Assembly (NCBI RefSeq): GCF_002197845.1
Contig: NZ_NIDE01000002.1
Location: 744,001 to 808,000 of the forward strand
DNA from: Fimbriiglobus ruber
GTDB lineage: Bacteria > Planctomycetota > Planctomycetia > Gemmatales > Gemmataceae
Length of the DNA stretch: 64,000 bases
Direction of reading: 5' to 3'
Shown here one piece after another: positions 44,981 to 50,549 of the stretch (positions are counted from its first letter, which is position 1; every line of letters begins with the position of its first letter). A model generated the notes under the pieces. It made no database searches. It was given only the letters and a program-made list of their open reading frames with translations, and was not told the DNA's origin. Made by a program: the position numbers and the translations under genes.

Positions 44981-46273
44981 CAGTAGTTTCCATTTTTTGT
45001 CACGACGCATGTGATGGTGGGTTTGGATGTTGCGACTGCTGGAACAGGTACTCGCTGAAGTCATCGAGGATATCCTGATACCGCGGGGGTGTGGATGCCG
45101 CGACCGGTCGGTTTGCCTTCCGGCCATGCGTCTTTGACGGACGGGCGGTCCCGACCAGCCATTGCCACACGTTCCGCAAGAACAGCGACAGCCCGACCAG
45201 CAACAACCGGTACAGTGGATCCCGTGAGGAGGTCCGAGCCCGGGAGTGGTTCAACTGGCGGTAGCTGGCTTCGATCCCGAACCGCGTCCGATACGTCTCG
45301 CGGACATCGACCGGAGACAATCGCACCTTCCAGGTCGCGAAGAACAGCTTCTTCGTGTGCCGCGTCTTCGTGCGGTGGCGGCGATACGACTTGTACGTCA
45401 CGACCAACCGGATGTCGACCGCGTCCTTCCCCGCCCGGTGGGTGTACGGGTACGAGCCCGCCTTCCAGTTCCGGCACGCGCGCATCCCCTTGGCCTTGCG
45501 GCCCCGCTTGGGTTTGCGGCCCCGCATGACCACCGGGATGATGAACGGGAGATTGTGATCCTGGAGCCACGCCATCACCGGCACGGTGAAGAAGTAGCGG
45601 TCGAGGAGAGCCGTCTTGCACACAATCCCGCTGGCCGCCACCTCGGCCCACAGGCGCTCGAGAACGTCGGTCGGCGTCTCCTTGGCGCGGACCCAGGTCA
45701 GGGCCAACGTGTACCGCCAACCGGCGACGACGACACACACGGTGGCATACGTATGGAACTTGGTGGTCCCGCGGTCGGGTTTGCCGCGGCGGAGTTGGCG
45801 GGCACTTTTTTTTGGGGCGCCGTAGTACGGGATGGCATGGTAATCGACCGCCAGGGTGACCGCCCGACCGGCCAATCGGGGCAACAGGGCGGGGAGCCGA
45901 AGCAACCGGTTGAGTCGTCGTTCGAGAGCCGGTACCTGCCGGGGCAGGTGGACCCGGAGGAGGTTCCAGAACGTCTGGTCGTGGGTTCCGGGGTACAGTC
46001 GGTGGACGGCACGGGATAACGACGCGGTGCGAGCCGCCGCCCACACCAGGACCGTCCAGAGCATGGCGGCCGTGCAGACCACCGCATCACCGAACGCGAA
46101 AACGGTTTGGCAATGCTCGGCGGCGGCCGCGAACACCTCGTTGGGGATGACACGAGGCGACAACCGGGTATACACTCCCATGGAACACGGGCTCCTTCCG
46201 TGGAGGGTGATTGCGTGACACAACCCCTTTACCGAACGGAGCCTGTGTTCCCTAGCTCAATTGGAAAGTACTG
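44981..46273 (-). mobile_element. ISH3-like insertion sequence (DDE transposase)
   Basis: Ends CAGTAGTTTCCATT (44981) and, reversed, CAGTACTTTCCAATT (ending 46273) form imperfect terminal repeats. AGTCC is duplicated at 44976-44980 and 46274-46278. Length 1293 bp with one transposase gene. Family assignment rests on the transposase pattern and the 5-bp duplication. Confidence 0.9.
45000..46223 (-). CDS. DDE transposase, ISH3-like
   Basis: 407 residues starting MCHAITLHGRSPCSMGVYTR. DDE features: VTLAVDYHAIPYYG (first Asp, about 123), CKTALLDRYFFTVPVMAWL (second Asp) and TRFGIEASYRQLNHSRARTS (Glu). FIIPVVMRGRKPKRGRKAKG is a basic insert seen in ISH3-type transposases. The open frame is intact. 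IS4-superfamily membership is clear; the ISH3 label is from memory of the FGIE(A)SYRQ and DRYFF motifs. Confidence 0.85.
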   Translation of the reverse strand: MCHAITLHGRSPCSMGVYTRLSPRVIPNEVFAAAAEHCQTVFAFGDAVVCTAAMLWTVLVWAAARTASLSRAVHRLYPGTHDQTFWNLLRVHLPRQVPALERRLNRLLRLPALLPRLAGRAVTLAVDYHAIPYYGAPKKSARQLRRGKPDRGTTKFHTYATVCVVVAGWRYTLALTWVRAKETPTDVLERLWAEVAASGIVCKTALLDRYFFTVPVMAWLQDHNLPFIIPVVMRGRKPKRGRKAKGMRACRNWKAGSYPYTHRAGKDAVDIRLVVTYKSYRRHRTKTRHTKKLFFATWKVRLSPVDVRETYRTRFGIEASYRQLNHSRARTSSRDPLYRLLLVGLSLFLRNVWQWLVGTARPSKTHGRKANRPVAASTPPRYQDILDDFSEYLFQQSQHPNPPSHAS

Positions 46274-47847: not shown

Positions 47848-48648
47848 ATGCCCGGCATGAGCCAGCCACAACGCGTTCTCGTTACCGGGTCGGCCGGGCG
47901 GGTCGGCCGGGCCGCGGTCAAGGGCCTGACGGCCGCCGGCCACCACGTCGTCGGGTTCGACCGCGTCCCCACGCCGGGACTGCCGCCGGCCCAGAGCCTC
48001 GTCGCCCCCCTGTCCGACGTGGCCGCCTTGCGGGCCGCGGTCGCCGACGGCGTCGACTGCGTGATCCACCTCGCGGCCGCCCCGGACGACGCCGCGTTCC
48101 CCCGCAAGCCGCCGCCGGACGACGGCGACAACTTCCTCTCGGACCTCGTCCCGAGCAACCTGGTCGGGCCGTACCACGTGATGGAGGCAGTCCGGACGGC
48201 GGGCGTCCGCCGGGTGATCCTGGCGAGTACCGGCCAGGTGGTCGACGGCCACCTCCGCTCGGACGACGTCCCCGTGACGGCGACGATGCTCCCGCGGCCG
48301 CGATATCTGTACGCCTGCACCAAGGTGTTCCTCGAAGCGCTGGGCCAAGTCTACGCGACGCAGCACGGGATCACAGTGCTGGCGGTGCGGCTCGGGTGGT
48401 GCCCGCGGGATCTGGGCCAGGTCGCGGAGATCCGTGCCAGCCACCTGGGGCAGGACGTGTTTTTCAGCCCCGGCGACGTGGGTCGGTTCTTCGCGGCGGC
48501 CGTCGGCGCGGAGAAGCTACCACAGTACGCGGTCGTCTACGCCGGCAGCCGGCCGGTCCACAACATGCGGTACGACCTCGACGCACCGCGGAAGTTGTTC
48601 GGGTACGAGCCCCAGGACCAGTGGCCGACGGGGGCGGAAGAGTTTTAA
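47848..48648 (+). CDS. NAD-dependent epimerase/dehydratase (uronate dehydrogenase-like SDR)
   Basis: 266 residues (ATG 47848; a second ATG at 47857 is possible). Extended SDR features: RVLVTGSAGRVGRAAVKGL (TGxxGxxG), HLAAAP at strand 4, catalytic Ser in VILASTGQVV and YLYACTKVFLEAL (YxxxK). Short C-terminal domain as in uronate dehydrogenase-type SDRs. Divergent from the amidohydrolase, so oxidation of a sugar acid followed by lactone hydrolysis is a reasonable hypothesis, not shown by sequence. Confidence 0.9.
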   Translation: MPGMSQPQRVLVTGSAGRVGRAAVKGLTAAGHHVVGFDRVPTPGLPPAQSLVAPLSDVAALRAAVADGVDCVIHLAAAPDDAAFPRKPPPDDGDNFLSDLVPSNLVGPYHVMEAVRTAGVRRVILASTGQVVDGHLRSDDVPVTATMLPRPRYLYACTKVFLEALGQVYATQHGITVLAVRLGWCPRDLGQVAEIRASHLGQDVFFSPGDVGRFFAAAVGAEKLPQYAVVYAGSRPVHNMRYDLDAPRKLFGYEPQDQWPTGAEEF

Positions 48649-48669
48649 TCGCGTCTCACTGGAGAAGCC

Positions 48670-50379
48670 ATGCGAATGACCACGGCGCCCCTCGCGCTGC
48701 TTGCCTGCGCGTTCGCACTCCGTGCCGCGGACGGTCCCAGCGTCATTCGCGTGACGGCCCGGTATCCCGGTGCGAGTGTGCAAGTACTGGACGCGACCGT
48801 CGCCCTGCCGCTCTTGAAGCAAATCCAGGGCACGGAGGGAGTCACGCGCACGGAATCGGAGTCCGCCAAAGACGGGACTTGCGCGATCACGGTCCGGCTC
48901 GACGCGAAGACCGATCCGATGAAAATGCAGGACGTGATCCGGAAGCGTGTCGCGCTGGCCGAGCCGGTTATTCCGGAGAAGTGCAAGCGCAGCGGAATCA
49001 CGGTCCGAACCGATCCGGCCCAACCGGTGGAGTTCTGGTTCGCACTTACAGATACGCGCAACCCGGACGACGTGCGGGATCTCGCGGATCATGCCCGCCA
49101 GGAGTACGCAGACGTCCTGCGCCGCATCCCTGGCGTGAACGAAGTACGGGTTCTCGGAACCACGGCCACGGATTCTTTCCTGCGTATCACACTGGACAAG
49201 GAGAAGCTCCGAGCTCGTGCCGTGTCGGTCGAAGAGGTCCGGGCGGCCGTGCAAGCGACGAACGATGTGGTTACGATCACCGCGACCGACCCGTCGCCGA
49301 AGGGAGATCCTCGACTGGTCATCCGGATTTCCGGACAATTGTCGACTACCCCCAAAACACTCGACGAGATTGTCATCAAGCTGGGTAACGGTCAAAACGT
49401 ACTCCTGCGTGACGTGAGCCGGCTGGAACTCGGTTCGAAAACGCCGAACGAATTGACGACGTTCGGCGGCAAACCCGCGGCGCTGCTCGCAGTCATCGCG
49501 AATCGCGACGCCACTCTCGAACAGCTCGAACCAGCAATCGATTTGCTACGGAAGGCAGCTCCCCCGGGCATGCAGTTCACGATGGCCGTCACGCCCGTTA
49601 CGCCGCGCGTGTTGCGCCTGGAAGTGCTGGTACCCGATGCCAGAACCATGGAGTACACACAGGAAAAGTGCAAGCGGGTGATGGAGAGTGTACTCGTCTG
49701 GAACGACGGGCTCCCGGCCATTTCGTTCACCGACCGGCTCCAAACGAACAGGGCCGAACTGCTGGTAACGTGCAAGCCGGACGCGGACGCGGACGCTCTG
49801 CAAAAGCGCCTCGCGGGCGAGATCCGCGAGGCCACCATCCGCATCTGCGATGTCACCGGGGGCAAGCCGGCGTTCCCCGTTCGCGTCGCGCTCGCGGGGC
49901 CCGACGCCGAGCATTTGTGGAAGTGGTCCGAGGCGATCCGGACGCGTGCCAGAAAGGACGCCCTCGTGAACGATGTCGCGGACTGGCCCGGCCGTGATGT
50001 GACCCGTCACGAGATGAGCTTCAACAAGGAAAAAGCAGAGGAGCTGGGGATCAGTCTGGGTAAGGCCCTTGAGTCCCTAAATTCCCTGACGGAAATGCAC
50101 AAGTTCCGAGGGGAAAAGCCGGACGAGTTGAACAACCTGTTTTTGAAGAATGCGAAAGGAGAATTGGTCCCGTTCACGGCGTTCGCCACGTTGAATCCCG
50201 TGGTGGAGTCCGCGTCGATCTACCGGCTCGGCCTGGAACGGGCCATACGGATCACGGCAAACGCGGCCGACGGGAAATCAGTCACGGACTGCGCCGAAAA
50301 ACTTCACGCCCTGGCCGAGAGCGAGAAAGCGAATCTCAAATTGGCGACCGGCTACCGCGCCGTCATTCTTGTTCCCTGA
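48670..50379 (+). CDS. Exported RND porter-domain-like protein without membrane segments
   Basis: 569 residues. Signal peptide MTTAPLALLACAFALRAADG. The mature part follows the porter (PN/PC) regions of HAE1/AcrB-type RND pumps: VIRVTARYPGASVQVLDATV, LLKQIQGTEGVTRTESESA, VIRKRVALAEPVIPEK, VTVRT-like strand, RIPGVNEVRVLGTTATDSFL, RITLDKEKLRARAVSVEEVR, AAVQATND, then, in the second half, EELGISLGKALESLN, FLKNAKGELVPFTAFATLNP, SIYRLGLERAIRITAN. In true pumps these are interrupted by 12 membrane helices; here none of the hydrophobic blocks exists. It begins 22 nt after the epimerase gene. Perhaps a soluble sensor, chaperone or domesticated porter; the function is unknown. Confidence 0.8.
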   Translation: MRMTTAPLALLACAFALRAADGPSVIRVTARYPGASVQVLDATVALPLLKQIQGTEGVTRTESESAKDGTCAITVRLDAKTDPMKMQDVIRKRVALAEPVIPEKCKRSGITVRTDPAQPVEFWFALTDTRNPDDVRDLADHARQEYADVLRRIPGVNEVRVLGTTATDSFLRITLDKEKLRARAVSVEEVRAAVQATNDVVTITATDPSPKGDPRLVIRISGQLSTTPKTLDEIVIKLGNGQNVLLRDVSRLELGSKTPNELTTFGGKPAALLAVIANRDATLEQLEPAIDLLRKAAPPGMQFTMAVTPVTPRVLRLEVLVPDARTMEYTQEKCKRVMESVLVWNDGLPAISFTDRLQTNRAELLVTCKPDADADALQKRLAGEIREATIRICDVTGGKPAFPVRVALAGPDAEHLWKWSEAIRTRARKDALVNDVADWPGRDVTRHEMSFNKEKAEELGISLGKALESLNSLTEMHKFRGEKPDELNNLFLKNAKGELVPFTAFATLNPVVESASIYRLGLERAIRITANAADGKSVTDCAEKLHALAESEKANLKLATGYRAVILVP

Positions 50380-50478
50380 ATCCGGCCGCGGCTTCGCATC
50401 GGATCGTCGGCGAATCGCACGGGTCAGCAGGGCGTTCCTACCAAGGACGGTACACAAAAACACAAACCAAAAAGCAAA

Positions 50479-50520
50479 AGCGCCGCACTCCAAATCGGCG
50501 CCGATTTGGAGTGCGGCGCT
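50479..50520. terminator. 42-bp perfect palindrome between convergent genes
   Basis: AGCGCCGCACTCCAAATCGG runs into its exact complement without a loop (axis at 50499/50500). It lies 100 nt after the RND-like gene and 30 nt after the WD40 gene on the other strand, the right place for a bidirectional terminator. AAAAGCAAAAG precedes it on the plus strand. Confidence 0.7.
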
Positions 50521-50549
50521 TGACCGCCGCTTCTGCTTTTAAATGAGCG

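What the first reader, a model, noticed from the sequence alone, without database searches (positions are those of the whole stretch)
48670..50379. Exported RND porter protein that lost all membrane helices
Seen: signal peptide plus sequence closely following both halves of the periplasmic porter region of HAE1/AcrB-type pumps, with no hydrophobic block anywhere in 569 residues. Known: RND pumps need 12 membrane helices for proton coupling, so this cannot be a pump alone. Inference: a domesticated soluble porter, perhaps modulating or templating a real RND pump or binding its substrates.
Basis: partly seen in the sequence, partly recalled or inferred. Interest (0 to 1): 0.65.

Follow-up and report, generated by a model that had tools for sequence, protein, structure and literature searches.

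The report
Efflux-pump body without its membrane motor
The gene encodes an exported protein that is the periplasmic half of a drug-pump-type transporter with all of the membrane motor gone; it belongs to a small family in one group of planctomycete bacteria, and some of its relatives are fused to, or encoded beside, the pump's adaptor protein, which suggests that pump parts have been reused for another job.

Summary
ORF 48670-50379 (+) encodes a 569-aa exported protein covering both periplasmic halves of an HAE1/AcrB-type RND pump, with no membrane-like hydrophobic segment after the signal sequence. TM1 is replaced by a signal sequence, TM2-TM7 are missing at one junction, and the chain ends before TM8. 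The AlphaFold2 model matches RND pumps over about 500 residues; Foldseek's 16 best hits are laboratory-made soluble AcrBper chains. It is not a private deletion: 15 such proteins were found in 12 of 95 genomes of the family (probably Gemmataceae), three in this genome, on one side of a well-supported branch (99/98). All 15 lack the proton-relay residues. Three lie directly downstream of an RND adaptor gene and two, in different genera, are adaptor-porter fusions; the adaptors are of two lineages. The two long inter-protomer arms are the most relaxed segments, while the short funnel hairpins stay as conserved as in real pumps. Best reading: a motorless, adaptor-binding RND porter that regulates or holds tripartite assemblies. 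Substrate binding has no support but is not excluded. The window copy evolves fastest and has no adaptor neighbour, so its role is inferred from relatives.

The parts
48670..50379 (+). Gene of the motorless (TM-less) RND porter, 569 aa
   Evidence: ORF and translation; PF00873 6e-54; AF2 model pLDDT 79.2, pTM 0.70
48661..48665 (+). Shine-Dalgarno-like GGAGA, 4 nt before the ATG
   Evidence: sequence read
48670..48732 (+). Signal sequence, residues 1-21, in the place of pump TM1; LRA-A type cleavage by eye; an early LLAC (residues 10-13) leaves a lipoprotein signal possible
   Evidence: cleavage judged by eye, no signal-peptide program available
48736..49605 (+). N-terminal periplasmic half (PN1, PN2, DN), residues 23-312, aligned to about AcrB 40-330
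49591..49617 (+). Junction (residues ~308-316) where AcrB ~331-570 (TM2-TM7 and the cytoplasmic link) is absent
   Evidence: alignment to AcrB and own pumps
49606..50376 (+). C-terminal periplasmic half (PC1, PC2, DC), residues 313-569, aligned to about AcrB 571-860; ends before TM8
50092..50118 (+). Place of the missing long DC arm (AcrB ~755-777); low-confidence stretch 475-483 of the model
47848..48648 (+). NAD-dependent epimerase/dehydratase gene; 21 nt between its stop and the porter ATG, so co-transcription is possible
   Evidence: PF01370 1.6e-20; spacing
50478..50521 (.). Perfect 22-nt inverted repeat without spacer between the convergent porter and WD40 genes; terminator-like
   Evidence: sequence

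Best explanation
The gene product is a soluble, exported RND porter-plus-funnel module that has lost the whole proton-driven membrane motor. It belongs to a family that most likely arose once from an HAE1 pump, in or before the ancestor of this bacterial family, by loss of TM2-TM7 and of everything from TM8 on, with TM1 replaced by a signal sequence. The family works as a partner of RND periplasmic adaptors (MFP): it keeps the short funnel hairpins and other periplasmic surfaces near which adaptors dock, has dropped selection on the two long arms that join AcrB-type protomers, and does not transport. I think it holds or titrates adaptors (a decoy or place-holder that limits assembly of real tripartite pumps, or a motorless cap on adaptor-channel assemblies). 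Shown: architecture, predicted fold, family, single branch, loss of proton relay, adaptor operons and fusions, relaxed arms. Inferred: physical binding to the adaptor; that the window copy, which has no adaptor neighbour, does the same; and the regulatory outcome.
For: Architecture. Fold: Foldseek ranks 1-16 are engineered soluble AcrBper chains (7b8s, 5ens, 5en5 and others; E 4.1e-41 to 1.7e-38); VIA Z 42.2 to CmeB (510 residues, 6.7 A), 41 to 42 to MdtF and AcrB. Family: 15 members in 12 of 95 family genomes; they match the junction profile from position 1-3, the other rows listed from position 16 or later. One side of a branch 99/98, 100% of 200 bootstrap trees, DN-arm columns left out. Proton-relay positions absent in 15 of 15, present in the 2 own full pumps printed. 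Adaptor gene directly upstream in 3 of 15 (TIGR01730 over cut-off in 3 of 3); among these three, adaptors are 61-64% and porters 58-64% identical. Adaptor-porter fusions in 2 of 15 (964 and 966 aa; TIGR01730 1.9e-72 and 2.6e-79 followed by RND permease matches; AF2 model of one: adaptor-like part, low-confidence linker 372-389, porter). A separate adaptor HMM over all 15 loci found adaptors in these 5 and in none of the other 10. The two adaptor types are different lineages (26-29% identical to each other; nearest own adaptors L070 at 55-62% and L067/L068 at 45-50%). Window scan: long DN and DC arms at conservation ratios 0.30 and 0.28 to real pumps (lowest 2.2% and 1.5% of 546 windows); short funnel hairpins 0.99 and 0.96. 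Adaptor contact sites of AcrB lie in DN, DC, PN2 and PC1 (PMC6975555, passages). Outer-membrane-channel genes (PF02321) are present in the genome.
Against: Ten of 15 members, the window copy included, have no adaptor in the stretches read (9.4 to 64 kb), so the adaptor link may hold for sub-lineages only. The long DN arm of a neighbouring protomer also contacts one adaptor position in AcrAB, so arm loss might weaken adaptor binding too. Engineered AcrBper crystallises as a trimer (with a DARPin) without any membrane part (PMC8617272, passages), so arm divergence does not prove loss of trimers. The window copy is the longest branch (1.69), lacks the DC arm and has lower GC3 (0.76) than its three neighbours examined (0.92-0.94), which also fits decay. 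The first, larger tree did not give one branch. No binding, expression or phenotype data exist here.
Confidence: 0.5

Rival explanations
1. Hetero-trimer subunit: the soluble porter replaces one protomer in trimers with full-length pumps and so changes or poisons them.
For: HAE1 hetero-trimers such as MdtBC exist and inactivating one AcrB protomer abolishes function (PMC8277102, passages). Pore helix conserved nearly as in pumps (ratio 0.92). Many full-length pumps in the genome.
Against: The arms that connect protomers are the least conserved parts and are lost in some members: DN arm in both fusions, DC arm in the window copy and G043. HMMs of the pump membrane parts found no full pump in any of the 15 loci, while the control locus L067 gave both of its pumps.
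Confidence: 0.15
2. Periplasmic substrate-binding or scavenging protein: the porter pockets bind a ligand in solution, as engineered AcrBper binds drugs.
For: AcrBper binds doxycycline, fusidic acid, levofloxacin and others without TM helices (PMC8617272, passages). PC1 and PC2 are kept, PC1 in shortened form.
Against: At the aligned positions of AcrB F136, F178, F615, F617 and F628 the window copy has V, L, R, gap and L; the switch-loop stretch is shorter and without the glycines. This weighs little: the two own full pumps printed also differ from AcrB at most of these positions, and ligand binding was not testable.
Confidence: 0.17
3. Decaying remnant: the window copy is a pump relic on its way to loss, with no present function.
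For: Longest branch of the family (1.69), lost DC arm, lower GC3 than neighbours and than two own HAE1 pumps, no adaptor neighbour.
Against: Intact 569-codon frame, SD-like site, signal sequence, mostly confident fold, and a family whose other members keep open frames and recognisable conservation. The other two own copies share the low GC3 (0.79, 0.76).
Confidence: 0.12

Closest known systems
HAE1 RND multidrug pumps (AcrB, MexB, CmeB, MdtF)
   Same: All six periplasmic subdomains in the same order; PF00873; predicted fold over about 500 residues
   Different: No TM2-TM12, no proton relay, signal sequence instead of TM1, altered switch loop, reduced inter-protomer arms
[quoted passage not shown]
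   Same: Nearly the same cut: the two periplasmic loops joined, TM helices removed; top Foldseek hits; described in PMC8617272 (passages)
   Different: AcrBper is a laboratory construct; this is a natural, exported family with reduced arms and, in some members, adaptor fusions
RND periplasmic adaptors (MFP, TIGR01730: AcrA, MexE, OqxA)
   Same: Fused or operonic partner in 5 of 15 members
   Different: The porter itself is not an adaptor; searches of the held library for such fusions or for TM-less RND proteins gave no description (listings only)
Hetero-trimeric RND pumps (MdtBC)
   Same: A precedent for non-identical protomers in an RND assembly (PMC8277102, passages)
   Different: Both MdtB and MdtC are membrane pumps (recalled)

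Membership tests
RND superfamily, HAE1/ACR_tran homologue | Significant match to PF00873 over its cut-off | tested here: met
   183.6 bits, cut-off 28
RND superfamily, HAE1/ACR_tran homologue | Porter (PN1, PN2, PC1, PC2) and funnel (DN, DC) fold | tested here: met
   AF2 model; Foldseek and VIA matches; window copy lacks the long DC arm
RND pump (functional transporter) | 12 transmembrane helices | tested here: not met
   no 19-residue window after the signal sequence above 1.18; AcrB ~331-570 and everything after ~860 absent
RND pump (functional transporter) | Proton relay D407, D408, K940, R971 | tested here: not met
   absent in 15 of 15 family members, present in the 2 own pumps printed
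RND pump (functional transporter) | NCBIfam permease models over their cut-offs | tested here: not met
   best 178.6 bits against 1250
RND pump (functional transporter) | Trimer | not testable with these tools
   no multimer prediction; arm relaxation is indirect
Tripartite efflux component (partner of an MFP) | Adaptor encoded with it | tested here: inconclusive
   met in 5 of 15 family members, not in the window copy
Tripartite efflux component (partner of an MFP) | Physical binding to the adaptor | not testable with these tools
   no binding assay or complex prediction available

The most novel reading that the evidence does not exclude
A natural class of motorless RND proteins: planctomycetes have turned the pump's periplasmic body into a soluble adaptor-binding part, in one sub-lineage as a single adaptor-porter polypeptide, which either controls how many real tripartite pumps assemble or forms a passive or differently energised periplasm-to-outer-membrane duct.
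Probability: 0.35. Interest if true: 0.78.

Novelty: new variant of a known kind. Interest (0 to 1): 0.62.

Why it matters
RND pumps are regarded as motor plus periplasmic pump body in one chain. Here nature made close to the same cut that structural biologists made to obtain AcrBper, kept the product as a family, and in two genera has it fused to the adaptor. That gives natural material for asking what the periplasmic half does without proton coupling, which surfaces suffice for adaptor binding, and whether pump assembly is regulated by motorless look-alikes. It also warns annotation pipelines: a PF00873 hit on a 570-640 aa protein need not be a transporter or a fragment.

Tried and rejected
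Rejected: one-off deletion or assembly artefact (15 members, two fusions in two genera). Rejected: wrong frame or chance ORF. Rejected: pump gene split in two with the membrane part nearby; HMMs of the pump membrane parts found nothing in the whole window or in the other 14 loci. Checked: 20 of the listed hits with short frames, fetched because they might have been further TM-less members. 19 of 20 have pump membrane matches next to the porter part, or in the next frame, and are pumps cut by a contig edge or a broken frame; the last (G042:C114) runs off its contig right after the porter part and stays open. Other short frames in the lists (G086, 333 aa, and several of 779-893 aa) were not fetched.

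Results against my reading. In the first tree (81 rows) the then 13 members needed two changes, with TML_G064 joined to the full pumps at support 87. Leaving out 20 of 81 rows (9 distant, mostly long-branch pumps and 11 others, mostly near-copies) gave one branch at 94, not starred. The careful tree with 15 members, 11 full-length pumps of the 20 then held and 18 of 48 N-half rows, DN-arm columns removed, gave 99/98 starred. The root is not inferred. Ten of 15 members have no adaptor nearby. The G094 neighbour that I first took for an adaptor from its size is a metallo-beta-lactamase-fold / cyclase-repeat protein. Hydropathy of 1.6 or more after the N-terminus occurs once in the family, in the G026 fusion (1.77), where the model shows strands. 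Own pump L070 has GC3 0.82, so low GC3 is not unique to the family.

Limits. At most 14, 3, 25 and 8 candidates per genome were scored (all of them, 14, in the own genome too), and their listings were cut, so 15 in 12 of 95 is a lower bound and absence outside the family is provisional. Subdomain boundaries of AcrB are recalled; the short-hairpin windows were placed by me from A803 and pseudo-symmetry. The AcrA row is out of frame and means nothing; I did not use it. Alignment A7 mixed adaptor and porter parts and was not used.

Papers. PMC8617272, PMC8277102 and PMC6975555: passages. All others: search listing and start of abstract only. Ten searches in all; those aimed at TM-less RND proteins, adaptor fusions or planctomycete RND systems were 25, 28, 29, 65, 66, 79 and 80: 0 papers for 25, 28, 65 and 80, 1 each for 29 and 66, 83 for 79 (15 listed). 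No listing showed such a family. Most subscription journals are outside that library.

Full report
1. The observation. The ORF at 48670-50379 (+) is real and intact: 569 aa, ATG start with GGAGA 4 nt upstream, TGA stop. It matches PF00873 at 6e-54 and solved RND pumps at up to 3e-34, the second half more weakly. Against E. coli AcrB and 19 full-length pumps of the same genome, the alignment shows three changes: the TM1 region is a signal sequence; AcrB ~331-570, that is TM2 to TM7, is missing at one junction; and the chain stops at AcrB ~860, before TM8. Nothing after the signal sequence reaches the hydropathy of a membrane helix.

2. Fold. AlphaFold2 on the window protein with its 12 then-known relatives gave pLDDT 79.2 and pTM 0.70. 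Foldseek's 16 best PDB chains are AcrBper entries (E 4.1e-41 to 1.7e-38), then come full AcrB-type pumps. That these entries are an engineered soluble AcrB comes from PMC8617272 (passages; entries not named there share their sequence with 5EN5). VIA-align gives Z 42.2 with 510 residues at 6.7 A to CmeB and 41 to 42 to MdtF and AcrB; the large rmsd suggests subdomain shifts (inference). Residues 475-483, where the long DC arm is missing, are of low confidence.

3. Not alone. The genome (G000, 12.36 Mb) holds two more such genes: C19:270831-272534 and C2:545810-547471, 33% and 30% identical. A profile of the three found 13 full-span short frames in 95 genomes of the family. A profile of the second half plus junction found the same 13 and two more; all 15 match from position 1 to 3, while the other rows listed start at position 16 or later. 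So 15 members in 12 of 95 genomes. The two same-genus genomes (86 and 87% complete) showed none in the lists; a short frame in one of them (G007:C52) is a pump cut by the contig edge. In draws of 392 genomes of the phylum and 297 of the class, every listed full-span match was in this family, with at most 3 and 8 candidates scored per genome. Of 20 short-frame hits examined afterwards, 19 proved to be cut or broken pumps and one is undecided. A contig scan named two carriers: Limnoglobus roseus PX52 and a lake MAG.

4. One origin. In a careful tree of 44 N-terminal porter regions, without the DN-arm columns, the 15 members are one side of a branch with support 99/98, in 100% of 200 bootstrap trees. 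Two earlier, quick trees gave two changes and one at 94. The nearest full pumps by identity are mostly those of L067/L068 (up to 41%).

5. Partners. In G000 C19, G018 and L. roseus (G051), three genera, the gene lies directly downstream of an RND adaptor gene; all three adaptors pass the TIGR01730 cut-off. In G026 and G092, two genera, adaptor and porter are one polypeptide of 964 and 966 aa. The AF2 model of the 964-aa fusion shows an adaptor-like part (long helices 92-128 and 135-167), a linker of low confidence (372-389) and the porter (pTM 0.54, relative placement not interpreted). The operonic adaptors are 55-62% identical to the adaptor of own full pump L070, the fused ones 45-50% to those of L067/L068, and the two sets 26-29% to each other. 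So the association exists with two adaptor lineages, which I read as evidence for working together. An adaptor HMM over all 15 loci found adaptors in these five and none in the other ten, the whole window among them; HMMs of the pump membrane parts found no pump in any of the 15, and all three models rang in the control locus L067. The genome also encodes many other adaptors and outer-membrane channels.

6. What was lost and kept. Proton-relay positions are gone in all 15. The switch-loop stretch has 10, 11 or 14 residues against 15 in AcrB and 17 in two own pumps, and the glycine-rich motif is not kept (its role from PMC8277102, passages). In a scan of 546 windows of 21 residues, comparing identity among the 15 with identity among 11 full pumps (AcrB and ten own; median ratio 0.82), the twelve lowest windows all start at 212-216 or 755-763, that is in the long DN and DC arms (ratios 0.30 and 0.28 at the preset windows); the short funnel hairpins are at 0.99 and 0.96 and the pore helix at 0.92. 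Without the window copy and with 8 own HAE1 pumps as reference, the arms again fill the lowest rows. Both fusions lack the DN arm; the window copy and G043 lack the DC arm. The long hairpins join neighbouring protomers in AcrB (PMC8277102); adaptor contacts lie in DN, DC, PN2 and PC1, though the neighbour's DN hairpin also contributes (PMC6975555, passages).

7. N-termini differ: cleavable-type signals in most; lipobox-like IPAC, TAAC and VSAC in C2b, G092 and G010; long hydrophobic N-terminal stretches in G094, G032 and G043 that may be anchors (assigned by eye and hydropathy). The family looks exported, perhaps anchored in some members.

8. Mechanism. I favour an adaptor-binding, motorless porter that regulates or holds tripartite assemblies. 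Steps shown: architecture, predicted fold, family, loss of motor, gene association, fusions, selective relaxation of arms. Steps inferred: binding, regulation, and transfer of this role to the window copy, which is the fastest-evolving member (branch 1.69), has GC3 0.76 against 0.91 in own pumps L063 and L067 but 0.82 in L070 (C19 and C2b copies 0.79 and 0.76) and sits 21 nt behind an epimerase gene.

9. Standing. As a member: RND homologue yes, RND pump no. What it works like: closest is AcrBper in shape; in role perhaps a decoy subunit. No description was found in the searches listed under Tried and rejected.

Noticed in passing
window 50478-50521: Perfect 22-nt inverted repeat with no spacer between convergent genes, with A-rich sequence before and T-rich sequence after it; looks like a two-way terminator (sequence).
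   Followed up: no
L141:5253-8147 and L142:6247-9147: Natural fusions of an RND adaptor and a TM-less porter in one frame, in two genera.
   Followed up: partly
L059:10099-12159: Neighbour of the G094 member: 686-aa ORF whose C-terminal part passes the NCBIfam model for subclass B3 metallo-beta-lactamase (291 against 240 bits), with squalene-hopene-cyclase-like matches before it.
   Followed up: no
window 48670-50379; L021:8781-10535; L022:8766-10520: The three TM-less genes have GC3 of 0.76 to 0.79, against 0.91 in own pumps L063 and L067 (0.82 in L070); weaker codon selection or lower expression is possible.
   Followed up: partly
window 45003-46223 (-): DDE transposase ORF (PF01609, 1.3e-7) near the porter gene; a transposase-like ORF, by eye only, also lies about 160 bases downstream of the C19 porter gene (L021:7408-8613).
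   Followed up: no
L066, L067, L068: Own genome has adaptor genes followed by two tandem full-length RND pumps (L066, L067; probably L068), an MdtABC-like order (the comparison is recalled).
   Followed up: no
L147:1730-3961 (G041:C52): A 744-aa frame away from contig edges that holds only one porter half followed by membrane-part matches: half an RND pump, or a pump with a broken frame.
   Followed up: no
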